From Palleronia caenipelagi (GTDB taxonomy: Bacteria > Pseudomonadota > Alphaproteobacteria > Rhodobacterales > Rhodobacteraceae), in contig NZ_VFSV01000025.1 of the NCBI RefSeq assembly GCF_007004065.1, positions 1-48,649 of the forward strand: DNA of 48,649 bases, read 5' to 3'. A program made the translations under genes and the position numbers. Below are positions 8,726-25,747 of this stretch, one piece after another; within the stretch, counting starts at the first letter, position 1; the number at the start of each line of letters is the position of its first letter. The notes under the pieces were generated by a model. The model searched no databases. It saw nothing but the letters and a program-made list of their open reading frames with translations, and was not told the origin of the DNA.

Positions 8726-9820
8726 TCACCGCCCCTCCGATACGTCCAGAAAGAGGTTCACCAGAGCGACGTTGACAAAGTAGTTGTGCTTTCCCGACCG
8801 GTGTTTTTCGACGAAACCAGTTTCAGCCAGGGCATCGAGATATTTGGCGGCGGTCTGGCGGCTGACTGACAGATCCCGCTGAAGGTACTCGATCCGGGTA
8901 TAGGGATGGCGGAACAGGTTGTTCAGAAGGTCCTGGCTGTAGATTTTCGGCATCTCGCGCCGAAGCCGGTGTTTCACCTCCGTCATCTGCTGGCGGATCT
9001 CCGCGACAATCTCGGAGGTCGTGGCGGAGGTCTCGGTCACAGCGTCCAACATATAGACGACCCAGCTCTCCCAGTCTCCGGTGTCCCGAACGGCTTGCAG
9101 GTGATGATAGTAGTCCCCCTTGTTCCGAGTGATGAAGCGCGACAGGTACAGCACGGGAATGTCCAGTAACCCTGTTCGGGTCAGGTAAAGGACATTGACG
9201 ATGCGCCCAATGCGTCCATTGCCATCGGCAAACGGATGGATGCTTTCAAACTGATGATGAATGAGCGCCATTTTGATCAGGGGATCCAGGTCGCAGAGAT
9301 CATCGACGTTGATGAACTTTTCGAGCGCCGTCATGTGTTCGATGATCTCGCGGGCGTCCTGGGGTGGAACAAAGACGATCTGGCCGGTTTGCTCGTTCTT
9401 GAGTGCCGTCCCCGGTTTCACGCGAAATCCGTCACTGCGTCCCTTCAGCAGACGGAACATGTCGATCAGCACTGAGTTCGGGATCAAGCCACCCGTATCA
9501 AGCAAATGGGCGTAACCCAGTCGCAGCGCATCGCGGTAAAGAGCGACTTCTTTGGCCGCCGGGGATTGCGGATCGTCCGGAAAGAGATCCGCCTGGAACA
9601 GCTCGTCCTGTGTGGTCACGATGTTTTCGACCTCGGAGGAGGCTTTGGCCTCCTGAAGGGCCAGCGTATCAATCAGGATGCCCTGGTTCGGGATTGTTTT
9701 TGCCTGTCCCTTGAGATCGGCGAGAGCACGGCTTGCGCGAGCGAGGGCTTTCAACACCGGAACGGTCTCGATATCGACCGCGGGAGGCAGAGGGGGGAGG
9801 GTGTAGGTCGGCTTTAACAT
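8726..9820 (-). CDS. Fic-domain protein with C-terminal winged helix
   Basis: This 364-aa Fic enzyme should transfer AMP (or another nucleotide) to a target protein hydroxyl. The catalytic loop HPFADGNGRIGR matches HPFx(D/E)GNGRxxR exactly. The N-terminal inhibitory helix motif SSEVEN fits (S/T)xxxE(G/N), making it a class II, self-inhibited Fic. The C-terminal part (HPYTRIEYLQRDLSVSRQTAAKYLDALAETGFVEKHRSGK) is a winged helix, suggesting autoregulation through repeated GTTAA boxes just upstream. It stands alone, with no short Phd-like antitoxin beside it. Target unknown. Confidence 0.92.
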   Translation of the reverse strand: MLKPTYTLPPLPPAVDIETVPVLKALARASRALADLKGQAKTIPNQGILIDTLALQEAKASSEVENIVTTQDELFQADLFPDDPQSPAAKEVALYRDALRLGYAHLLDTGGLIPNSVLIDMFRLLKGRSDGFRVKPGTALKNEQTGQIVFVPPQDAREIIEHMTALEKFINVDDLCDLDPLIKMALIHHQFESIHPFADGNGRIGRIVNVLYLTRTGLLDIPVLYLSRFITRNKGDYYHHLQAVRDTGDWESWVVYMLDAVTETSATTSEIVAEIRQQMTEVKHRLRREMPKIYSQDLLNNLFRHPYTRIEYLQRDLSVSRQTAAKYLDALAETGFVEKHRSGKHNYFVNVALVNLFLDVSEGR

Positions 9821-16567: not shown

Positions 16568-17730
16568 CGAGCACGCGCCCCCACGTTTCGCAGTTGCCAC
16601 TTGAAGGCATAAGAGTTCTTGATCTGACCCATGTCATCGCTGGCCCGATGGCAACTCATCAATTGTGCATGATGGGGGCCGAAGTGATCAAAGTCGAACG
16701 TCCGGGGGAAGGCGACGGAATGCGGGCGCTGCGCACACAACCAGACCAAAATGGGGTGCCACCAGCGTTCCGTGCCCTGAACGCTGGAAAAAAGTCGGTC
16801 ACGCTGGACCTAAAAGTTGCAAAGGACCGCGATCATCTGCTCGCATTGGCCAGCTCGTGCCAAGTATTCGTCGAAAACTTCAGACCCGGTGTCGCTAAGC
16901 GCCTCGGCTTATCTGCAGGTGATATCCGGCGCGTTCGCCCCGATGTGATCTACTGCTCCATTTCGGGCTGGGGGCAAACCGGAGAACTGTCTGCCTTACC
17001 GGCCTACGATCATGTCATCCAGGCCGCCACGGGAATGATGGCGATGCAGGGCTCAGAGGGCCCACCGGTCAAAGTCGGTTTCCCGGTTGTCGATACGGCA
17101 ACGGGCATGTCGGCAGCCACTGCTATTCTGGCGGCTTTGTTGCGCCGCGCAAAAGGCGACACATCGGACGTCGAAATCGATGTTTCCATGGTCGACAGCG
17201 CGATGCTGCTGATGGCAACCGTCTATGCGCAGACAATCGCGACAGATGCCGCGCCCCCCCGCGTGGGCAATCGAGGATTTGTCGGCAGTCCGGGCGCGAG
17301 CACCTTCGAAGCCGCTGATGGCTATGTGTCGATTGCCGCCAATACAATGGGTCAGTTTCGAACATTGTGCAGCATCGTGGGCCGAGCGGACTTGGCACTG
17401 CCGCCCTACCTGCCAGACGGATTGTCCGACACCGATTTCTTGTTCAACCTTGCCAGCCCCGAACTTGGCTCTGAATTGTCAGCCGAAATTCGAAAACTGG
17501 AAGCAGCCGAGTTCGAAAGAGCGCTCATCGCGGGGGGCGTTGCAGCCGCGCGTGTTCGTGATCTTCACGAGTTTTTGACAGAGTTGTACCACAAGACACC
17601 AAGCTTGAATGTTCCTGAAGAACCAACGGCTCTTATGCCTGGTTTTCGCAGCGAAGGCGCTCTTAAAAAGGAAAGTTGTTACGCGCCACTGCTGGGTGAA
17701 CATACAAAAGTAACGCCTGAAACTGCTTGA
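16564..17730 (+). CDS. CaiB/BaiF-type (family III) CoA-transferase
   Basis: This 388-aa enzyme starts LPLEGIRVLDLTHVIAGPMATHQLCMMGAEVIKVERPGEGD, the family III hallmark. The VENFRPGVAKRLGL block and D177 in VVDTATG match the region of the catalytic Asp. Family III enzymes move CoA between acids such as oxalate/formate, carnitine, or C4-C5 dicarboxylates without a ping-pong release step. It is slightly shorter at the C-terminus than typical 400-430-aa members, yet still ends YAPLLGEHTKV, as the family does. With the divergent TTT transporter it suggests uptake followed by CoA activation of one organic acid. Confidence 0.9.
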   Translation: MTSTRPHVSQLPLEGIRVLDLTHVIAGPMATHQLCMMGAEVIKVERPGEGDGMRALRTQPDQNGVPPAFRALNAGKKSVTLDLKVAKDRDHLLALASSCQVFVENFRPGVAKRLGLSAGDIRRVRPDVIYCSISGWGQTGELSALPAYDHVIQAATGMMAMQGSEGPPVKVGFPVVDTATGMSAATAILAALLRRAKGDTSDVEIDVSMVDSAMLLMATVYAQTIATDAAPPRVGNRGFVGSPGASTFEAADGYVSIAANTMGQFRTLCSIVGRADLALPPYLPDGLSDTDFLFNLASPELGSELSAEIRKLEAAEFERALIAGGVAAARVRDLHEFLTELYHKTPSLNVPEEPTALMPGFRSEGALKKESCYAPLLGEHTKVTPETA

Positions 17731-17741
17731 CGTCTCCAAGA

Positions 17742-18550
17742 GGGATTGCCAACTTGCAGACGCGCCCGAGGGTGTTTAGCCGGTCGCCATGAATGTACCA
17801 GCTGAGATGCCGCGCCTGAAGGGCTATCGTTTTCCCCGTGAAGTCGTCGCCTATGCCGTTTGGGCCTATCATCGGTTCGCGCTGAGCACGGCGGATATAG
17901 AGGATCTGCTCGCCGAGCGAGGCGTCATCGTCAGCCGGGAAGCCGTTCGGAAATGGGTGAACCGGTTTGGTCGGCATTTCGCGCATTGCATCAAGCGCGA
18001 CCGGCCCGCAGCGTCAGATAAGTGGCACCTCGATGAGGTCGCCGTCCCGATCAACGGCATCAAGATGTGGTTATGGCGGGCCGTGGACGGGAACGGCGAT
18101 GTGCTCGACATTCTGGTGCAGCCGAGGCGGAACGCCAAGGCAGCCAGGCGGTTTCTGAAACAGTTGATCGCCCGGTTTGGCCAGCCTCGCGTTATCGTCA
18201 CGGACAAATTGCGCAGCTATATCAAACCGATCCGCCAGCTGGCTCCAGACGCAGATCACCGGGCTCATAAGGGCCTGAATAATCGTATTGAGGGCTCGCA
18301 CCGACCAACGCGGAAACGAGAAAAGCTCATGGGCCGGTTCAAGTCGGTCGGGCAAGCGCAGCGCTTCCTCTCCGCCCATGACCAGATCAATGTGATATTC
18401 AGACCCCGCCGCTACCGACTTTCAGCCATCTCTTACCGCCACGCCAGATCAGATGCCTTCGATCTGTGGCGCAGCTACGCCCTCGAAATGACCGCGTGAT
18501 CGGATCCGCGTAGGACTTTTACAATCGGTGCAGTACAAGTTGGCAATCCC
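17742..18550 (+). mobile_element. IS6-family insertion sequence (809 bp)
   Basis: Perfect 15-bp terminal inverted repeats bound it: GGGATTGCCAACTTG on the left and CAAGTTGGCAATCCC on the right, with a single intact transposase inside. Size and layout match IS6 elements. The eight bases outside each end (CTCCAAGA and CCCGCGCC) differ, so there is no target duplication. This points to later recombination between copies or a deletion next to the element. It inserted 11 bases after the CoA-transferase stop. Confidence 0.88.
17789..18499 (+). CDS. IS6-family transposase
   Basis: The 236-aa DDE transposase appears intact. A short N-terminal helix-turn-helix (STADIEDLLAERGVIVSREAVRKWVNRFG) is followed by the catalytic Asp in WHLDEVAV, the second Asp in VIVTDKLRSY, and the Glu in LNNRIEGSHRPTRKRE. 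It fills nearly the whole element between the inverted repeats. IS6 enzymes work by a replicative or conservative cointegrate path, which can join unrelated plasmid segments and delete neighbouring DNA. That is in keeping with the mixed gene content right of it. Confidence 0.92.
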   Translation: MNVPAEMPRLKGYRFPREVVAYAVWAYHRFALSTADIEDLLAERGVIVSREAVRKWVNRFGRHFAHCIKRDRPAASDKWHLDEVAVPINGIKMWLWRAVDGNGDVLDILVQPRRNAKAARRFLKQLIARFGQPRVIVTDKLRSYIKPIRQLAPDADHRAHKGLNNRIEGSHRPTRKREKLMGRFKSVGQAQRFLSAHDQINVIFRPRRYRLSAISYRHARSDAFDLWRSYALEMTA

Positions 18551-18659
18551 CCCGCGCCGCCTCTATCCGAGGCGTCATTTCTACCATCGACAATTTGTTA
18601 GTTTTGACGAGCTTGCAACGGGGCTTTATCGTAAAGACCAATATCCGCAATGACCCAAC

Positions 18660-19199
18660 TTACCTCACCCTCTTCACAGTTGCCGAACTGACTTTAAATA
18701 TCGCCGCAATGTCTTTGACCGCGCGGCCTTCAGCTTTCATGCGCAGAACTTCTCCTCGCTGATCAGGTGTCAGCGCTGGGGGTCTTCCCCCAACACGACC
18801 TTTCGCGCGGGCAGATTTCAGACCCTCCAGGGTGCGCTCGCGGATGCGTTCCCGCTCAAACTGTGCGATGGACGCAAAGACATGGAAGACCAGGCGGCCG
18901 GCTGGGGTCGTGGTGTCGATGTCTTCGGCCAGGGACCGAAATCCAGCGTCCTTGGCTTCGATGTTTGCGACGATGTCGAGCAGCTTGGGGAGAGATCGTG
19001 CTAAACGATCATACTTAGCCACGAGGACAACATCGCCGACCCGAAGTTGATCCAGCAAGCGGTTGAGCTCGGGCCGCGCTTTAGCGGTGCCGCTGATTTT
19101 CTCAGAAAAGATCCGCTCCGCGCCCGCCGCCTTCAGCGCGTCCAGTTGAGCATCAAGGTTCTGCTCCTCTGTTGAAACTCTGGCGTATCCGACGATCAT
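18660..19199 (-). CDS. Serine recombinase, Tn3-type resolvase
   Basis: This 179-aa resolvase has the catalytic Ser in MIVGYARVSTEEQNLDAQ (S9) and the arginines of VLVAKYDRLARSLPKLL. The E helix ERERIRERTLEGLKSARAKGR follows, with a C-terminal helix-turn-helix (GRAVKDIAAIFKVSSATVKRVR). It is full length and probably active. There is no Tn3 transposase beside it, so it is either a transposon relic or a plasmid multimer-resolution enzyme. Its likely res site lies in the AT-rich stretch immediately upstream (19200-19380). Confidence 0.88.
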   Translation of the reverse strand: MIVGYARVSTEEQNLDAQLDALKAAGAERIFSEKISGTAKARPELNRLLDQLRVGDVVLVAKYDRLARSLPKLLDIVANIEAKDAGFRSLAEDIDTTTPAGRLVFHVFASIAQFERERIRERTLEGLKSARAKGRVGGRPPALTPDQRGEVLRMKAEGRAVKDIAAIFKVSSATVKRVR

Positions 19200-19235
19200 G
19201 TTTTGACGGTATCAGAAACGTCTCAAAATACAAAA
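19200..19235. promoter_or_regulatory. Possible res subsite next to the resolvase
   Basis: An imperfect dyad (TTTTGACG ... CGTCTCAAAA) sits directly before the resolvase start, where Tn3-type enzymes have their recombination and regulatory subsites. Only this subsite is recognisable to me; the rest of the 200-base AT-rich gap shows no further clear dyads. Confidence 0.35.
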
Positions 19236-19456
19236 GGTTTTGCACCGGGGTTATGATCCAAAGAATGCCCTTGTGTCGTTGGAGGGCGTGAGAGGGATCA
19301 AAACCGACCGTTTTTTCACCCGCTTCGATTATTTTTTGTATTTGGATCAAAATTATGCTAATTTAGTGCTTTAAGAATTTGATTCCTTGAAAACTGGATC
19401 GATTGAATCTGGATTTTTCCGCTAGATCTCCCTGGCTGGGAGAGGAGCGGAATAGC

Positions 19457-19606
19457 ATGAAAGCATCGAGGTTCAGCGATGCCCGCGAAAATCTGGAGGA
19501 TTGGTGTAGACACTACAACGAGGTCAGACCCCATAGGGCGATCAGATACAACGTCCCGATTGCCCTGCACTATCCCAATGGCGTCACCAGCCCGTCATCG
19601 TGCAGG
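19457..19606 (+). pseudogene. IS3-family transposase OrfB, C-terminal remnant
   Basis: The frame reads FSDARENLEDWCRHYNEVRPHRAIRYNVPIALHYPNGVTSPSS, the last 45 or so residues of an IS3-type transposase (the RPHxAIxYxxPI ending). The catalytic core is gone and the usual stop is missing, so the frame runs on into the next segment. It marks the left border of the AT-rich tyrosinase island. A minus-strand copy of the same signature was not seen on the right side. Confidence 0.75.
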
Positions 19607-19654
19607 AGGCGGAGAAATATAGTTCCAGGCGACCCAGAGTTGGGGAGTATTGAA

Positions 19655-19669
19655 AGTAATATTATTACT
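19655..19669. promoter_or_regulatory. AT-rich palindrome ahead of the large island gene
   Basis: AGTAATATTATTACT is a perfect 7-1-7 palindrome 32 bases upstream of the large gene's start. It may be an operator or part of the promoter of the island operon. Only position and symmetry support this. Confidence 0.3.
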
Positions 19670-19700
19670 TCTGCGAGCAGTAGACTTTTTGGAGAGCAAT

Positions 19701-22700
19701 ATGAAACTTACAGCGTATTTAGTTGCAACAGATGCAGGAGATATTGAAAGTCAGTGGGTTTCTCTGTGGGTTGCAAGTGGAAATTTTACACCTGCAGTAA
19801 CTGATAAAGAGCTTTTTGACGCTTCATCCCGTTTGGGACATTCACGATCGGACAAGTTTGGCGTGGTTGAGTTTAGAGTTCCAAGCAATTGGTCGCAGAA
19901 TGTTGTCGCCCTTTTTGTTACAATCCATAAACGACAAGGTGATCCGATCAAAATCGCATGGGAAAACGCAACTAATCCAAACGAAATCACAATATTAATA
20001 GACAAGCTTCCGAACACTATCCCTAAAAAACGGGATTTTTGCGATTTTTACTTGGAAGACTGCGAGCTCGTGAATGAACAAAGATTTGTGCAGTTTGTTC
20101 GACTAGGTGTTCTGGACAAAGATACTGGTGAAGTACGACCACCCCATGTATCAAAATTCAATATCGTTGAAACAAAGCCTCTTACTGAAGCCGAAATTGC
20201 AGAGCTGAAGGAAGCGCAAACAAAAGCAGTTGATGACTGGTCCCCTTCATCGAAAGATGCTGTTGCCACTCCAGCAGTTGGTCACGCACAAGATGCGCAA
20301 GTCGAAGAGTTAAGCTCCCGAGTGGCACGCTCAGCGGGGAAAACCTCAGCTCAATCCGAGATGCAAGAGACCGTGCGAATGGTTGGGGAACCGGCTCTCA
20401 CCTTAGAGGAGTTTAGCCGCGTTCCAATTCCAACACCTGCGACAATGCAGTTAACGGGAACAATGGTGCAGGCTAATTATATGCGTCATACCTTGTCAGC
20501 ACTCGCAACAGCGTATGGTGCGATCAGAGATACCGTTCCAGTGCGGTATGAAATGGATTGTGACAACCCCATCGACTGGGATTTAACGCCAACGATCCGC
20601 CAAGCATGCGAGCCGTACTTTTTACATGCGATACATTTTTCTCAACGGGTTAAATATAAAGGCCCTTGCGCTGGAAAGGTTACATACACCTCGACGCTCT
20701 TGCCATGCCAAGAAAAGCAGATTGCTACTGTTAGCTGGAAACGAAACGAAGGAACTTCCCGTTCAGAAGAAAGAACGGCTATCGAGCGTTTAAGCAGTAC
20801 GATGTCGCGCTCCCGAGACATTGAGGACATACAAAAGGCAACTGTTCGAGAAGCGATGAAAGGGAATTCCACTTCAAGTACGGCAAGTATTTCTGCAAGC
20901 GTAAGCGCGCCACTAGGAAGCCTTCCAGTTAATGTAGGTGTATCGGGTGGTTTTTCAAAAACTAAATCCTCTGCGTCTCAGAATTCAAGTAGAGACATGA
21001 CCGCCCAAGCCAGCCAAAAATTGCGTGATAATTCGTTTCAGGCGGCTGAATCTCTTCGCTCACAAACCGTTACTGTTACCCACGAAGTTTCGCAAGAAGA
21101 AGCAGTTTCTGCCGTGACAGAGAATATAAAGAACTACAATCGAATGCACGCCATGCATCTCGTTGTGAAGGAAGTGAACAGTCGATACGAAATTGAACAC
21201 CTTCCTGTCGGCGTTGTTCCGACGGTTGCAATTCCGTTTGTCGCTTCAATGTTTGACGAGTTAAAAGTTCTTCGCTGGAGAAAATACCTTGAGCCAGCGG
21301 TGCATTACTCACTCATTCCTGCATTTGATGCGATTGAGCGCATAATGAACCAATATGCCAGTTCATCGTTGCCTCAAGGAAGGTTCGCAGACGCAACATT
21401 AAACGATATTTATGGAACAGTTGAAGCTGAATTTCGGATCGCGTCTCCTGATTTAGGTCAATTTGGAGCACCACAAGCAAACCAAACCATTTCTGATTTG
21501 ATAAAAGACAGATGGGGATGGTTCGGTATTATTCACGCTGAAAAACTACTAGATCGTTGGGAGAAAATCCAAGAAGGACGAGCAGAGTATTATCAAAAAC
21601 ATATTGCTCCACTTCTCGCGGCAAAACTTGCTAAACATGTCTATGTTCGTGCGCGAAACAAAAATCATACCCCAATTAATTTACCCATTGATTCAACGGC
21701 ACTTACGAAACTGAACAATGACGGTTTCATCAAGGTTGCGTTTAATTTGAACGGCTCAATAAATCATATTAAACGCTCCGATATAGCCTATTTGGAATTT
21801 TATCTTGCGGATGAGACGGGAAATGAGGTGTCTCTTGGCGACGTGTTGCCAGAAGGTTCACAAGTGATTTTCCATTCTGGGGAATTTGAATACTCCACAG
21901 ATTTTAGGAATGATCTTCTGTTTTCCTCTAATCGGATAAGAGATGATTTGGATTTAGGAGACACTGTCCTGGTGAGAACTCCGTTAAGTCCGAGTGAGCT
22001 CGAGGACCCAGTTGAAACAGATATCATCCTTAGAGACCGGTTGCTTCAAGTGCTCAATACAAATCTGGTTAGCGCGACAGAGGCCATTTTACAGCAGCTC
22101 GCTCAAAATGAACCATCCCATCTAAATATGTTATTGGATGCGATTAAAGTTCCCAACGACCCAAGCAGAACTGTCAGAGATATTATAGGAAACTTCGTCG
22201 GGGTCAGTGATTGTGCCCTTCTCTTCGAATTAGCGCCTGGATTTGATGAATTAACGGATGGAATGATTGATCTCGAAGATGGTGAAACGCTACTCGACCA
22301 CTACACTTCAGACACGCCGATTCAACCAACAACTGTTTCAGTTCCTACTGGCGCAGTGCACATGGAAGCCTATTTGGGCAAGTGTATTCTTCGTGAGAAA
22401 ATTGACCACTCCCGCGCCGTGGACTGGGATGCGCCGTGTGAAAGCAATATTACCCCCATTAATCCCGTTTCCACTGACACTCGCCGCGCTGACCCCGCCG
22501 ACACAACACCAACAGATTTCTCTCAACCGATAATTAATATGCAGGCCGTGCCAGCCGCACCTGATTATCAGGGGACATCTGCGTTGATATCGGCGATTAC
22601 TCAGCCCGATATTTTTAGAGATATTACTGGCCTTGACGGAACGCAAAAGAACACGATTGAAGCATTCAAGGAGGCTCTAAAATACGCTGATGGTGCAAGG

Positions 22701-23030
22701 TCAGAGGTCGCGCTTGCAGCTTCACGTATGGCTGAGCGCGAACAAGGTGTGAAGAATGTTGATCGTCTTGGCTCGCGTCTAAAAGATGCTGTGGAGGCGG
22801 GCCTAATAGACAAAGAGGAGGCTAAAAAAGTATATGGTGAGCAATTAAAAAGGGCATTGGGTGGTGTGCCTGAAAGAAGTGTACCAGTGTCTAACAATAT
22901 GCCAAAACATAGCCAATTAGTTGACACACTAATTGACGCATTTGGCCTTTCAAATGTTGACAGCGAATCTTCTGAGAATGCTTCCGAAGATGCGCTTATC
23001 TTCAGCTCAGGCCAGCATCATAGTTTGTGA
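19701..23030 (+). CDS. Large orphan protein, 1,109 aa, partner of the tyrosinase
   Basis: I chose ATG 19701 because GGAGAG lies just upstream; an earlier ATG at 19650 lacks a site. There is no signal peptide or long hydrophobic helix. Residues 1-110 look like a beta-sandwich (MKLTAYLVATDAGDIESQW). A charged linker spans about 190-225. A conserved-looking block (SWKRNEGTSRSEERTAIERL) is at 344. A Ser/Gly-rich alternating stretch (SVSAPLGSLPVNVGVSGGFS) covers about 394-423 and could form an amphipathic beta hairpin. YNRMHAMHLVVKEV is at 479, VPTGAVHMEAYLGKC near 880, and helical repeats ending SRLKDAVEAGLIDKEEAKKV near 1040. I recall similar blocks in large unassigned bacterial proteins. The sequence is AT-rich, unlike its neighbours. 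Function unknown; a pore, carrier or copper chaperone is speculation. Confidence 0.85.
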   Translation: MKLTAYLVATDAGDIESQWVSLWVASGNFTPAVTDKELFDASSRLGHSRSDKFGVVEFRVPSNWSQNVVALFVTIHKRQGDPIKIAWENATNPNEITILIDKLPNTIPKKRDFCDFYLEDCELVNEQRFVQFVRLGVLDKDTGEVRPPHVSKFNIVETKPLTEAEIAELKEAQTKAVDDWSPSSKDAVATPAVGHAQDAQVEELSSRVARSAGKTSAQSEMQETVRMVGEPALTLEEFSRVPIPTPATMQLTGTMVQANYMRHTLSALATAYGAIRDTVPVRYEMDCDNPIDWDLTPTIRQACEPYFLHAIHFSQRVKYKGPCAGKVTYTSTLLPCQEKQIATVSWKRNEGTSRSEERTAIERLSSTMSRSRDIEDIQKATVREAMKGNSTSSTASISASVSAPLGSLPVNVGVSGGFSKTKSSASQNSSRDMTAQASQKLRDNSFQAAESLRSQTVTVTHEVSQEEAVSAVTENIKNYNRMHAMHLVVKEVNSRYEIEHLPVGVVPTVAIPFVASMFDELKVLRWRKYLEPAVHYSLIPAFDAIERIMNQYASSSLPQGRFADATLNDIYGTVEAEFRIASPDLGQFGAPQANQTISDLIKDRWGWFGIIHAEKLLDRWEKIQEGRAEYYQKHIAPLLAAKLAKHVYVRARNKNHTPINLPIDSTALTKLNNDGFIKVAFNLNGSINHIKRSDIAYLEFYLADETGNEVSLGDVLPEGSQVIFHSGEFEYSTDFRNDLLFSSNRIRDDLDLGDTVLVRTPLSPSELEDPVETDIILRDRLLQVLNTNLVSATEAILQQLAQNEPSHLNMLLDAIKVPNDPSRTVRDIIGNFVGVSDCALLFELAPGFDELTDGMIDLEDGETLLDHYTSDTPIQPTTVSVPTGAVHMEAYLGKCILREKIDHSRAVDWDAPCESNITPINPVSTDTRRADPADTTPTDFSQPIINMQAVPAAPDYQGTSALISAITQPDIFRDITGLDGTQKNTIEAFKEALKYADGARSEVALAASRMAEREQGVKNVDRLGSRLKDAVEAGLIDKEEAKKVYGEQLKRALGGVPERSVPVSNNMPKHSQLVDTLIDAFGLSNVDSESSENASEDALIFSSGQHHSL

Positions 23031-23036
23031 GGTTTT

Positions 23037-24101
23037 ATGATAATTCGTCAAAATATTAAAGACTCGAACGTTGCAAAGATGTTTCAAACCAACTTCATCA
23101 ACAATCTTGTTGTAAAAAAGCCAAATGCGAGGCAGCAAGCGTTCATAGACAATTTTTTTGATAGTCCCATCGACCCGACGACTAGTATTTCAACAGAAGT
23201 GCCTTCGCTTTCAAATGTAATAGGATCTGGCCAGCAGCAAGTAGGAAGCTTTTTGGGAGAAAAATATACTAAGGTGACGTGTATTCACTATTTTGTATTA
23301 CTACACAAAGTTGCCAAAAGACATCATAACTCTGAAAACTTTCTACCCTGGCATAGAGCTTTTTTAGCCGAATTTGAAGAAGATTTAGGGATGCCGTTAC
23401 CCTATTGGGCTTGGTTTGACGAAAGTGGGGTAAATGATGTTCCAATCGAGCTGACCCTTTCAGAGCTTCAGAAAACAGCTGCGGATTTAGGTGAAACCAA
23501 CTATTTTGCAAACTTGAAAAGATTTAACCCTGATGGAAAGCTCGGCTCTCTATCGAAGGAAATTCAGCGCTTTTTCAAAGGTTTTTTGCAAGATGCAATT
23601 GCAAACAATACTGGTGTTATTTGGTTTAGTGACGATTCATCAAAGCCTGCATTTTCAGACTCCATTGAGCAAGGTACAGGTTCTATTTCGCCAGGTGGAA
23701 TGCATAATGCAATTCATGGAATGGTTGGGCGTTCTTCAAGTCCGAACACGTTGGGGCATTTATCACGAATTGCAGAATCTCCTTTTGACCCAATCTTCTG
23801 GTTGCATCACGCATATATTGACAAAATTTGGGCTAATCTTGATCAATTGTTTGCATTTTGGGATCAATTCTTCCCTCTGGAGAGTGGAACCAGAATGGCT
23901 AGCTTATATAAAGGTTATCCCAACTTTAACTATCCAAGCATTAACCCATTACCGTCGGGGGATTTGCCTCCGACTATCAAATCATCGAGTAACCTACGTT
24001 CAATTGCGACTTTAGACTATAATTATGATCATTCTTGGTTGGATCTTTGGATTAAACAAGCCCCAGGTTTTAAACCCCTTGTAGACCATATTGAGCCCTA
24101 A
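23037..24101 (+). CDS. Tyrosinase (type-3 copper oxidase), 354 aa
   Basis: All six copper ligands can be placed. CuA uses H84 (CIHYF), H97 (KRHHNSENF) and H106 (FLPWHRAFL, exactly nine after H97). CuB uses H223 and H227 (GMHNAIHGMV) and H257 (DPIFWLHHAYIDKIW). The family hydroxylates monophenols and/or oxidises o-diphenols to quinones with O2. The protein has no signal peptide or C-terminal lid domain. Its ATG lies six bases after the stop of the large gene (TGAGGTTTTATG), so the two are coupled. AT-rich codon use matches that gene and differs from the rest of the plasmid. Substrate unknown; melanin-type chemistry or protein crosslinking are options. Confidence 0.93.
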   Translation: MIIRQNIKDSNVAKMFQTNFINNLVVKKPNARQQAFIDNFFDSPIDPTTSISTEVPSLSNVIGSGQQQVGSFLGEKYTKVTCIHYFVLLHKVAKRHHNSENFLPWHRAFLAEFEEDLGMPLPYWAWFDESGVNDVPIELTLSELQKTAADLGETNYFANLKRFNPDGKLGSLSKEIQRFFKGFLQDAIANNTGVIWFSDDSSKPAFSDSIEQGTGSISPGGMHNAIHGMVGRSSSPNTLGHLSRIAESPFDPIFWLHHAYIDKIWANLDQLFAFWDQFFPLESGTRMASLYKGYPNFNYPSINPLPSGDLPPTIKSSSNLRSIATLDYNYDHSWLDLWIKQAPGFKPLVDHIEP

Positions 24102-24268
24102 TCTCAGTAGTAAAAAAGTTGGAAGTGTAGCTTAATCCGTGCAATGCGCTTTGGTTCAGCTCAAAGTATGCAAAAAATCCCCCTTGCCCACGCCCGCCAA
24201 TAAGCTAGCGTTAATAGTGGTTTGAAGCCCTTTTGAACCTCCGCTCGTAAGATCGAATAGGAGGTTCT

Positions 24269-24358
24269 ATGATTTTATGTTTTGGGGTTGAGGAGTATCT
24301 TGAGGGGTTGCTAGCAGACGGTATTTCGGCTCGCCCCGATTTCCAAACCGACTCATAA
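24269..24358 (+). CDS. Possible 29-aa small ORF right of the tyrosinase
   Basis: A textbook AGGAGG site precedes an ATG opening MILCFGVEEYLEGLLADGIS and ending at TAA. It may be a small gene or the first codons of a lost transposase or other gene, since the next bases (AAGATCGGGAATTCC) look like a junction. The rest of the 335 bases between the tyrosinase and brnA hold no other candidate. Confidence 0.25.
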   Translation: MILCFGVEEYLEGLLADGISARPDFQTDS

Positions 24359-24436
24359 GATCGGGAATTCCAATTGGAGTTCTCGGATCATTTCCCACCC
24401 CTAGATCTAATTCACCATAACGAACATTCTGCGTCG

Positions 24437-24697
24437 TCACTGGCGATGCGCATCGTAGTAGGATCGCAAGACGGCGTTCATGCGGGCCTGGTAGCCTCTG
24501 CCTTGCTGTTTGAACCACTCGACGACGTCGCTGTCGAACTTCGCGGTGACTTGGGTCAGGTTGCGCGCCACAGGCATCACCACTTTAGCGGTCGACCAGA
24601 AATCTTCAGTCAATTCGGGCTGGTCTGAAAAATCGATATCCTCGTCCTCCAGCGCGGCCAGCTCTTTCGGGGACAGGGGTCTGTCATATTTTGGCAT
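24437..24697 (-). CDS. brnA: BrnA-family antitoxin
   Basis: The 86-aa product has an acidic N-terminal region (PLSPKELAALEDEDIDFSDQPELTEDFWSTAK) that typically embraces BrnT, and a C-terminal ribbon-helix-helix (TAKFDSDVVEWFKQQGRGYQARMNAVLRSYYDAH), the usual BrnA order. It neutralises BrnT and represses the operon. It starts inside the last codons of brnT (14-base overlap), and the toxin-first order is characteristic of brnTA. Confidence 0.92.
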   Translation of the reverse strand: MPKYDRPLSPKELAALEDEDIDFSDQPELTEDFWSTAKVVMPVARNLTQVTAKFDSDVVEWFKQQGRGYQARMNAVLRSYYDAHRQ

Positions 24698-24956
24698 AGT
24701 AAAGCGCCCTTTCTTTCCGCGAGGCCCGCCGTGCTGAGATCAGGCGCGTTCGCCCATCTCTGGCGGTGTGGACAACGGTCAGCACGACGACGTTCTCGAC
24801 GATGCCCAGAGAGATGGTGCGTGTTTCCCCGTAGTCTCTGCGGTCGTCGACACGATCCAAACGGGGGTGATCGAAAATCTGGATGGCCAGCTCGAAACTG
24901 ACTCCGTGTTTCTCGATGTTCCGTTGGTTCTTCTCGTCATCCCACTCAAACTGCAT
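24684..24956 (-). CDS. brnT: BrnT-family ribonuclease toxin
   Basis: This 90-aa toxin begins MQFEWDDEKNQRNIEKHGVSFELAIQIFDHP, the BrnT signature, and continues DRRDYGETRTISLGIVENVVVLTVVHT before ARRASRKERALYYAKI. BrnT folds like RelE and cuts RNA independently of known ribosome recruitment details. ATG 24956 is preferred over the TTG two codons earlier. A TATAAT-like hexamer on the minus strand near 24985-24995 may be its promoter. Together with parDE it gives the window a second addiction module. Confidence 0.92.
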   Translation of the reverse strand: MQFEWDDEKNQRNIEKHGVSFELAIQIFDHPRLDRVDDRRDYGETRTISLGIVENVVVLTVVHTARDGRTRLISARRASRKERALYYAKI

Positions 24957-25229
24957 TTGCAATGCCTAACGTAATTACTTTTATAATTATAGCAAGCGTT
25001 CCTTTCCGAACCCAGCACCCGGCCCTGTGTGTCGCGGAGCCGTCACCGGGGTTAACCTTCAGACCCCGTACAGGTCACCCACATTCTGTCGCAGCGGTTC
25101 GTCCAAATGACGATCTACCTGATCTCGTAGATTTGGACGTTCGCTTCGAAGCAGCTGAGGCGACGTCGACCTTGACCATCCAAGGATAAGGATCGGGCCT
25201 CTGCACTACAGGACCGACAAAGAGCCCCC

Positions 25230-25409
25230 GTGGAGAGAGCAGCGATCATCTCAAGCGAAACCGGCAATCTCATAACGGGCGAGTTGTTGGACCGAACGTC
25301 CAACGGAAGGACGCTGATCCGCTCTGCGGGCGCCATGGTCCGGGACGGCCGCGAAGTCACTGTCGTACAGTTCATGTCCGCGGCCCGAAAGGGTCAATCA
25401 GTTCCGTGA
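25230..25409 (+). CDS. Possible small protein, 59 aa, GTG start
   Basis: The frame reads VERAAIISSETGNLITGELLDRTSNGRTLIRSAGAMVRDGREVTVVQFMSAARKGQSVP, with coding-like composition and balanced secondary structure. It is open upstream to about 25185 without an ATG, so it may be the tail of a truncated gene. It converges on the H-NS-type gene eight bases away. The family is not recognised. On the opposite strand a frame of similar length has no features. Confidence 0.35.
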   Translation: MERAAIISSETGNLITGELLDRTSNGRTLIRSAGAMVRDGREVTVVQFMSAARKGQSVP

Positions 25410-25417
25410 TCCGGAGA

Positions 25418-25747
25418 TCAGGCCGCGATCAGGAAGTCGTCGAGCGACTGTCCAGATTCCAGAGCCTCTGCAATCCAGCGCGGCTTGCGACCGCGACCGC
25501 TCCAGGTCAAAGACGGGTTTTCCGGATGGCGATATTTCGGCGGCAGGGCAGGGCGGGTTTTCGGGCCATTGGTCTCCGCCATAAGCTGATTGAGATCAAA
25601 CCCATGGTCCTTTGCTGCTAATTGCGCGGCCTTCAGAGCTTCCGCGCGCTTGCGGTCTTCAAACCCGTCAATTGCTCTGGTGACGGCCTTTTGGAGAGCC
25701 TTCAATTCCTGAAGATCCATTCCGTCGAGATCGAAGTCTTTGGTCAT
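25418..25747 (-). CDS. H-NS-family nucleoid-associated protein
   Basis: This 109-aa protein has an N-terminal oligomerisation coiled coil (LDGMDLQELKALQKAVTRAIDGFEDRKRAEALKAA) and the C-terminal H-NS DNA-binding motif NPSLTWSGRGRKPRWIAEAL. In alphaproteobacteria this is the HvrA/SpB-like branch, which binds AT-rich curved DNA and silences or modulates genes. ATG 25747 follows an AGGTAA site; an ATG six codons upstream lacks one. It sits beside the AT-rich tyrosinase island and next to the anti-defence block, so it may silence acquired DNA (inference). Confidence 0.9.
   Translation of the reverse strand: MTKDFDLDGMDLQELKALQKAVTRAIDGFEDRKRAEALKAAQLAAKDHGFDLNQLMAETNGPKTRPALPPKYRHPENPSLTWSGRGRKPRWIAEALESGQSLDDFLIAA

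What the first reader, a model, noticed from the sequence alone, without database searches (positions are those of the whole stretch)
19701..24101. Two-gene AT-rich island: giant orphan protein plus tyrosinase
A 1,109-aa protein of unknown function is followed six bases later by a tyrosinase with all six copper ligands. Both share AT-rich codon use that contrasts with the GC-rich plasmid, so they likely arrived together, and the coupling implies joint function. Neither has a signal peptide. The large protein has a beta-sandwich start, a Ser/Gly-rich alternating stretch that could be a membrane hairpin, and conserved-looking blocks, but no known enzyme motif. Options (inference): a caddie-like copper loader, a carrier or pore delivering the oxidase, or an antagonistic or defensive quinone-producing system. 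I know of no described system with this pair.
Basis: partly seen in the sequence, partly recalled or inferred. Interest (0 to 1): 0.85.

Follow-up and report, generated by a model that had tools for sequence, protein, structure and literature searches.

The report
Modular carrier protein paired with tyrosinase
A plasmid of a bacterium carries a tyrosinase gene right behind a very large protein that turns out to belong to an unnamed, widespread family of modular proteins, some of which carry, or sit next to, quite different enzymes; the tyrosinase is probably one more such partner, but this exact pairing has been seen only once.

Summary
In detail: an AT-rich two-gene unit (1,109-aa protein, 6 bp, tyrosinase with all six copper histidines) in a GC-rich plasmid contig. 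The large protein is not an orphan. Residues 285-985 match a core found in 96 other places (about ten phyla by record title, and haloarchaea), with no model in the libraries scanned. Its C-terminal tails are exchangeable: about a fifth of 84 match a peptidase or wall hydrolase (C70, amidase, GH25, M23, M15, Tae4); at least 56 match nothing. Short-tailed members more often have a tightly coupled downstream gene (7 of 14, window included, against 4 of 66; cut-off chosen afterwards, no contrast at a stricter one); two are caspase-like. The window protein has a short tail and the tyrosinase behind it. My reading: a carrier with its enzyme encoded in trans.

AlphaFold draws a very long hairpin with a low-charge Gly/Ser tip; Foldseek's top hits are aerolysin and lysenin pores, but superposition is poor and periodicity does not show beta strands. 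Pore or delivery function is inference.

Against: No immunity gene or secretion signal was found. The family matters more than the pair.

The parts
19448..19558 (+). 3' remnant of a transposase (IS3-type by recall) directly upstream of the unit
   Evidence: PF13683 rve_3, E 3.2e-9, residues 16-52 of the frame 19403-19744
19691..19694 (+). GGAG, probable ribosome-binding site of the large gene
   Evidence: read from the sequence
19701..23030 (+). large protein, 1,109 aa, member of the unnamed core family
19701..20552 (+). variable N-terminal part (residues 1-284), no family match, low-confidence model
20553..22655 (+). conserved core (residues 285-985)
   Evidence: alignments A2, A6, A10; 107 matching frames in 99 other fetched loci, 96 after dropping L025, L084 and L105, which repeat places already held
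20616..21236 (+). predicted long hairpin region (residues 306-512), six strands of 23-28 residues in the model
   Evidence: AlphaFold2, pLDDT about 70-90 at the base, 28-55 towards the tip; four strands, two of them of 66 residues, in the relative L031
20850..20993 (+). Gly/Ser/Ala-rich, low-charge tip (residues 384-431), candidate membrane-insertion segment
   Evidence: aligned segment in 59 of 59 cores, mean 57% G+S+A and 10% charged; alternation p 0.005 here, p < 0.05 in 9 of 59
22656..23027 (+). short C-terminal tail (residues 986-1109), helical in the model, no effector domain recognised
23029..23032 (+). GAGG overlapping the stop codon, probable ribosome-binding site of the tyrosinase gene
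   Evidence: read from the sequence
23037..24101 (+). tyrosinase, 354 aa, six copper-ligand histidines H90 H97 H106 / H223 H227 H258
   Evidence: PF00264 E 2.2e-27; alignment

Best explanation
The unit is a carrier protein and its enzyme. The large protein belongs to an undescribed modular family: a variable N-terminal part, a shared ~700-residue core, and an exchangeable C-terminal end that in some relatives is an enzyme that attacks cell walls or proteins (shown). In this member no C-terminal enzyme is recognised and a tyrosinase is encoded 6 bp downstream, so the enzyme is supplied in trans (arrangement shown, role inferred). The core most likely binds a membrane and inserts the low-charge Gly/Ser-rich tip of a long hairpin, as an oligomeric pore or anchor, which brings the bound enzyme to or across the target's envelope (inferred). 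The tyrosinase then oxidises phenols or exposed tyrosines to quinones, which cross-link and poison proteins (inferred from enzyme chemistry). The pair reached this plasmid as one AT-rich cassette beside a transposase remnant (likely). Neither protein shows a signal peptide, so release would need lysis or an injection device; the genome does hold an eCIS locus on another contig (shown), but no link is shown.
For: Core shared with 107 frames in 99 fetched loci. Of 84 tails scanned: Peptidase_C70 in 7, Amidase_2 in 3, GH25, DUF2272, OmpA and C39_2 in 2 each, and HH_signal, M23, Tae4, M15_4, M15_3, PG_binding_1, DUF922 among the singles. Sister cores L031 and L032 (support 99) and their close kin L028 and L033 have tails of 476, 95, 131 and 491 aa. 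Short-tailed members (<= 220 aa) have a tight same-strand downstream gene of 200 aa or more in 7 of 14, long-tailed in 4 of 66, p 2.5e-4; without the window 6 of 13, p 9e-4; also without the recurrent 323-335-aa partner 3 of 9 against 3 of 65, p 0.02. Downstream genes include caspase-like proteins in L042 (PF00656 7.7e-6) and L044 (PADLOC caspase 4e-4; no Pfam match). Shared composition and 6-bp spacing. Foldseek ranks aerolysin pores first for two models built from overlapping alignments, E 8e-7 and 6e-6.
Against: No other core locus has a tyrosinase in the flank held: 0 of 99 by phmmer, motif and a tyrosinase profile (flanks up to about 8 kb, but under 2 kb or cut short in about a dozen). 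4 of 46 core genomes hold a tyrosinase, none in the fetched core locus. At least 56 of 84 tails match no family, so an enzyme in every tail is not shown. At a tail cut-off of 150 aa the cis/trans contrast vanishes (2 of 8 against 9 of 72, p 0.30). For the pore-former hits TM-scores are 0.02-0.17 with rmsd 24-55 A, and long extended strands may inflate the E-values. The hairpin arms show no beta periodicity and, in one of six segments, a weak alpha one (p 0.04). No gene family recurs in more than 4 of 93 neighbours scanned, so no common immunity or export gene. No secretion signal. Model confidence for the window protein is low (mean pLDDT 60, pTM 0.47).
Confidence: 0.4

Rival explanations
1. 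Chance neighbours. The large protein works alone in its family's role and the tyrosinase is an unrelated passenger (pigment, stress protection or phenol oxidation) that came with the same donor segment.
For: Pairing seen once: none in 99 other core loci; no core in 18 genomes with tyrosinase matches; bacterial tyrosinases commonly act without such a partner (recalled).
Against: 6-bp same-strand spacing with an overlapping ribosome-binding site; the coupled-gene excess in short-tailed members.
Confidence: 0.32
2. Envelope scaffold, not a weapon. The core is anchored in the cell's own envelope and positions enzymes that remodel wall or surface; the tyrosinase cross-links surface material.
For: An OmpA-bearing gene directly upstream of the L001 core with BLAST relatives before the L043, L051 and L053 cores; HHH and OmpA matches in the L002 core protein itself, both just under Pfam's cut-offs; wall-hydrolase tails; no immunity genes seen.
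Against: These OmpA-type partners belong to one group of four cores (L001, L043, L051, L053); patchy distribution, 4 of 398 phylum genomes, with strong mixing of phyla in the tree; presence on plasmids.
Confidence: 0.15
3. Cargo of a contractile injection system (eCIS) encoded elsewhere in the genome.
For: The window's genome has an eCIS-type locus on contig C118: a sheath protein (PF04984), two eCIS_core proteins (PF13699) and, by eye, spike- and baseplate-like genes. eCIS_core in 15 of 54 other core-bearing genomes against 0 of 26 comparison genomes and 0 of 14 controls, p 0.002.
Against: 39 of 54 core genomes have no eCIS_core match; sheath proteins in 14 of 29 core genomes (window's own included) also ring in 3 of 14 controls and include prophages; no eCIS gene family was seen among core neighbours in the 25 families listed; the comparison genomes are all Pseudomonadota, so taxonomy and lifestyle confound the contrast; within the window's family it is 2 of 5 against 0 of 12, p 0.07.
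Confidence: 0.08
4. Caddie-like copper loader for the tyrosinase.
For: Some tyrosinases need a co-encoded helper (MelC1; recalled).
Against: No MelC1 among Pfam or NCBIfam hits; far larger than a caddie (recalled size about 120 aa); tails and partners of the family are unrelated to copper.
Confidence: 0.03

Closest known systems
Polymorphic toxin carriers such as the TANFOR class (PMC7073777, passages seen) and LXG or Rhs proteins (recalled)
   Same: shared carrier part with exchangeable C-terminal domains, some of them wall hydrolases
   Different: 0 of 59 core stretches match any NCBIfam model, the library that should hold TANFOR as TIGR02542; no signal peptide seen; no immunity-gene pattern; the enzyme can be a separate gene
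Aerolysin-like and binary-toxin beta pores (aerolysin, lysenin, protective-antigen type)
   Same: predicted long hairpin with a low-charge Gly/Ser tip; top Foldseek matches
   Different: no sequence match in the PDB, TM-scores under 0.2, longer hairpin, periodicity not beta-like
Bacterial tyrosinase / catechol oxidase (PF00264)
   Same: type-3 copper site with six histidines
   Different: 354 aa with a ~75-aa N-terminal extension before the domain; the best match by E-value is 37% identical over residues 96-267, short pieces up to 56%; best plasmid matches about 30%
Caspase-partnered pore formers (bacterial gasdermin loci, recalled)
   Same: candidate membrane-active protein with a caspase-like gene next door in L042 and L044
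   Different: no gasdermin among Pfam hits of the window protein; size and architecture differ; PADLOC finds only the caspase

Membership tests
Unnamed modular core family (defined here) | core profile match over the whole ~700 residues | tested here: met
   positions 31-786 of 789, E 1e-218 with A10 (the window was one of its 59 rows); phmmer with the window protein alone reaches L027 at E 1.5e-113
Unnamed modular core family (defined here) | Gly/Ser/Ala-rich low-charge tip between the conserved E..G.S and SR | tested here: met
   residues 384-431
Unnamed modular core family (defined here) | enzyme in the tail or as the next gene (not shown for most members) | tested here: inconclusive
   next gene is a tyrosinase; no other fetched member has one; at least 56 of 84 tails match no family
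Polymorphic toxin | related carriers with different C-terminal domains | tested here: met
Polymorphic toxin | immunity gene directly downstream | tested here: not met
   only 4 of 66 long-tailed members have a tight same-strand next gene of 200 aa or more (smaller genes were not counted); the next gene after the tyrosinase is on the other strand
Polymorphic toxin | export signal or secretion-system marker | tested here: not met
   0 of 101 frames of 800 aa or more with a strongly hydrophobic 19-residue stretch in the first 80 (crude scan); no marker domain
Aerolysin-like pore-forming protein | aerolysin fold | tested here: inconclusive
   Foldseek E 8e-7 but TM-scores 0.03-0.10 to aerolysin; low model confidence in the hairpin
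Aerolysin-like pore-forming protein | oligomeric membrane pore | not testable with these tools
   needs biochemistry
Tyrosinase (PF00264) | six copper-ligand histidines and family profile | tested here: met
MelC1 caddie | MelC1 family profile | tested here: not met
   no such match in Pfam or NCBIfam at E <= 1
TANFOR polymorphic toxins | TIGR02542 domain | tested here: not met
   whole window protein: 0 NCBIfam matches; 0 of 59 core stretches match any NCBIfam model. N-terminal parts of the other proteins were not scanned with NCBIfam
eCIS cargo | eCIS_core domain in the protein, or gene inside an eCIS locus | tested here: not met
   no PF13699 in the protein; the genome's eCIS_core genes lie on other contigs. 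Loading into particles was not testable

The most novel reading that the evidence does not exclude
The core is a new class of self-inserting protein translocator, spread across bacteria and archaea, that accepts interchangeable enzymes either fused to its end or docked from a separate gene; here it delivers a copper phenol oxidase, a chemistry that my paper searches did not show as a delivered effector.
Probability: 0.2. Interest if true: 0.88.

Novelty: new variant of a known kind. Interest (0 to 1): 0.64.

Why it matters
A protein family with 112 confirmed stretches in one scan of genome contigs, and with tails of at least six peptidase or wall-hydrolase kinds, matched no family model in the proteins that I scanned. 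If the core is a translocator, it would be a new carrier class with a ready catalogue of partners, and the window pair would be a simple two-gene test case. Tyrosinase as an effector would add quinone chemistry to the known means of attack.

Tried and rejected
Caddie role: rejected. Phage origin: no relatives among viral contigs in two pattern scans for the core and one for the tyrosinase; the one 'phage' record with a core (MT835996) is a human-faecal scaffold whose other frames look bacterial by eye. PHROGs: two weak matches of short stretches to families of unknown function for the window protein, E 0.004-0.005; PADLOC: none for the window pair, a weak PbeC match (E 0.0035) for L064. Flanking repeats that would mark a transposon: none of 16 bp or more with an 11-base seed in 17400-25600. 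Promoter and terminator scan: no excess over shuffles. Beta alternation of the tip as a family rule: only 9 of 59 at p < 0.05. A GH18-like reading of the gene after the L022 core and a metalloprotease reading of the one after L030 are by eye only: no Pfam match for either, no PDB match for L022, L030 not searched there. L044 partner: no PDB match at E <= 0.1; L046 partner: one at E 0.093.

Literature: search listings 78, 90, 92, 93, 98, 119 and 130, and passages of PMC12419801 and PMC7073777; no paper was read whole. None of the listed titles and abstract starts describes a tyrosinase as a delivered effector or this core family. The library is open-access papers only.
Full report
Observation. 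The window is a whole contig, G000:C111, of a Palleronia-like genome: the same-genus genome G010 carries the contig that the genome collection lists as Palleronia aestuarii. It holds a 1,109-aa frame at 19701-23030 and a 354-aa frame at 23037-24101 on the same strand, 6 bp apart. Both are AT-rich (GC 0.45 and 0.40; GC3 0.39 and 0.35) beside 17 other window genes measured, with GC3 0.48-0.82. The surroundings are plasmid-like: ParA-type and RepC-type proteins, an IS6 transposase, a resolvase, a BrnT/BrnA pair, ParB-like and H-NS-like proteins. A transposase remnant ends about 140 bp upstream of the large gene.

The tyrosinase. PF00264 E 2.2e-27. All six copper histidines are invariant in an alignment with ten others. 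It is the only PF00264 protein found in the genome and has no match in the 13 other genomes of the genus. In a sample of 398 phylum genomes 18 others have a match; the best by E-value is 37% identical over residues 96-267, with short pieces up to 56%. In the alignment 8 of the 10 others have a Glu four residues before the first CuB histidine; this one has Pro. That residue is recalled to help phenol deprotonation, so the enzyme may be more of a catechol oxidase.

The large protein is not an orphan. It has no family match above a cut-off in Pfam, NCBIfam, PHROGs or PADLOC; seven relatives scanned whole with Pfam show only accessory domains (OmpA, HHH, DUF2272, Tectonin), and 0 of 59 core stretches match NCBIfam. 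Translated searches find relatives on 25 plasmid records of Streptomyces, Haladaptatus, Caballeronia, Psychrobacter, Nostoc, Polaromonas and Embleya. A scan of genome contigs gave 112 confirmed relatives, of which the best 80, 79 distinct loci, were kept. A core profile built from eight sequences matched 107 frames in 99 of 100 fetched loci; three loci repeat places already held, so 96 places, and L040 and L041 share identical sequence. Record titles and the tree cover Pseudomonadota, Bacteroidota, Actinomycetota, Chloroflexota, Acidobacteriota, Cyanobacteriota, Bacillota, Verrucomicrobiota, Nitrospirota and Planctomycetota, plus a haloarchaeal plasmid; several are metagenome bins. It is rare within a group: 4 of 398 phylum genomes, 10 of 292 order genomes and 5 of 194 relatives, the window's own genome counted each time. 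In the tree phyla are mixed. The window protein sits in a supported set of 40 rows (SH-aLRT 100, quick method) but on a long branch of its own, apart from the P. aestuarii copy.

Modularity. The core is followed by tails of 38 to 673 aa. Of 84 tails scanned (of 90), 16 Pfam families were matched: Peptidase_C70 in 7, Amidase_2 in 3, GH25, DUF2272, OmpA and C39_2 in 2 each, the rest once, among them M23, M15, Tae4, PG_binding_1 and the Hedgehog signalling domain; the counts sum to 28, so at least 56 tails match nothing. Closely related cores differ in tail: L028, L031, L032 and L033 form one supported group with tails of 131, 476, 95 and 491 aa; by eye the L033 tail is the M23 peptidase. N-terminal parts are variable; only HHH-type motifs were recognised, in at most 4 of 66.

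Genes next door. In 80 members (window included) with a readable downstream neighbour, short tails (220 aa or less) go with a tight same-strand next gene of 200 aa or more in 7 of 14, long tails in 4 of 66 (p 2.5e-4). The cut-off was chosen after seeing the table; at 150 aa the contrast is 2 of 8 against 9 of 72, p 0.30. Leaving out the window gives p 9e-4, and leaving out also the recurrent 323-335-aa partner family p 0.02. The seven are the window, L042 and L044 (caspase-like), L046 (unknown) and L020, L096, L098 (the recurrent unknown partner); the four are L006, L027 (SH3-bearing), L030 and L095. L022, not in that table, has a 450-aa gene 3 bp downstream. Gene calling was a simple longest-frame rule. 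Among 93 of 200 neighbours scanned no family recurs more than four times, and the commonest are regulators.

Against the pair. No tyrosinase was found in the frames of the 99 other core loci by phmmer, by a copper-site motif or by a profile of 11 tyrosinases. As controls, phmmer found all 11 loci whose match lies on the strand translated (the other 8 of 19 lie on the other strand), and the profile found 9 of 9 loci that it was not built from, phmmer 7 of 9. Flanks were up to about 8 kb but about a dozen loci are under 5.3 kb in all. A Pfam search of 46 core genomes found tyrosinase in 4; the matches compared do not lie in the fetched core loci. Among 18 genomes with tyrosinase matches none has a core. 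So the pair is not conserved.

Structure. AlphaFold of the window protein (36 rows) has mean pLDDT 60 and pTM 0.47; the core base is confident, the N-terminus and the hairpin tip are not. With the more central relative L031 (59 rows) mean pLDDT is 77.5, pTM 0.54, and the hairpin becomes four strands of 28, 66, 66 and 28 residues, with pLDDT 37-61 along residues 131-230. Foldseek ranks aerolysin pores first for both, then lysenin, epsilon toxin, protective antigen and, more clearly for the second model, phage collar and tail proteins; the viral library gave one match at E <= 0.001, an ssRNA-phage maturation protein with probability 0.05. TM-scores to the pore formers are 0.02-0.17 and rmsd 24-55 A, so this is local likeness of long strands. 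Lipoxygenases and lipases with TM 0.09-0.19 may point to a PLAT-like lipid-binding domain (inference; aligned ranges were not given). Hydrophobic periodicity along the arms has no beta peak and a weak alpha peak in one of six segments. I hold the membrane-inserting hairpin as plausible and its beta nature as open.

Export. 0 of 101 core frames has a strongly hydrophobic stretch near its start, by a crude scan. The genome has an eCIS-type locus on another contig. eCIS_core occurs in 15 of 54 other core-bearing genomes and 0 of 26 comparison genomes (p 0.002), but the comparison genomes are all Pseudomonadota, so this is a lead, not a result. Sheath proteins ring in 14 of 29 genomes (10 over the cut-off), the window's own among them, and in 3 of 14 controls.

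Conclusion. Ordinary parts: the tyrosinase is intact and the two-gene unit is real. New: the large protein belongs to a broad, unnamed modular family whose ends are interchangeable and are sometimes enzymes. The likeliest role of the window pair is carrier plus trans-encoded enzyme; the once-only pairing keeps this below even odds.

Noticed in passing
L099:120-1022 and L103:4246-5082: Encapsulin-type shell genes (Linocin_M18, E 2e-16 and 5e-16) lie directly upstream of core genes in Methyloglobulus and an Anaerolineae MAG.
   Followed up: partly
L030, L040, L045, L047, L050: Two core proteins stand in tandem in five loci and in L041, which matches L040. In four of the five the second copy ends, by eye, in a papain-like peptidase.
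   Followed up: partly
L040, L041: Contigs filed under a Mesorhizobium and a Nitrospira MAG have the same length and frames and share identical sequence where compared: misbinning or recent transfer.
   Followed up: partly
L052:10155-12122: One tail of 84 matches the Hedgehog amino-terminal signalling domain (E 2.9e-40); by eye it is the Pseudonocardia one.
   Followed up: no
L020:5171-6169, L095:10787-11767, L096:10787-11767, L098:10647-11618, L101:3877-4884: A recurrent 323-335-aa partner of unknown kind follows one branch of cores, within 10 bp in four of five and after 89 bp in L101.
   Followed up: partly
G000:C118 (L148, L149): The window's genome carries an eCIS-type locus with two eCIS_core proteins and a sheath protein.
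   Followed up: partly
window 8726-9820, L002:11635-13218, L003:11428-12573: Fic-family genes lie on three of the plasmids that carry a core gene; whether this exceeds chance was not tested.
   Followed up: no
L009 (MT835996): A GenBank 'Bacteriophage sp.' scaffold holds a core gene and frames that look bacterial by eye; probably a mislabelled contig.
   Followed up: no
window 24437-24962: A BrnA/BrnT toxin-antitoxin pair on the opposite strand follows the unit.
   Followed up: no
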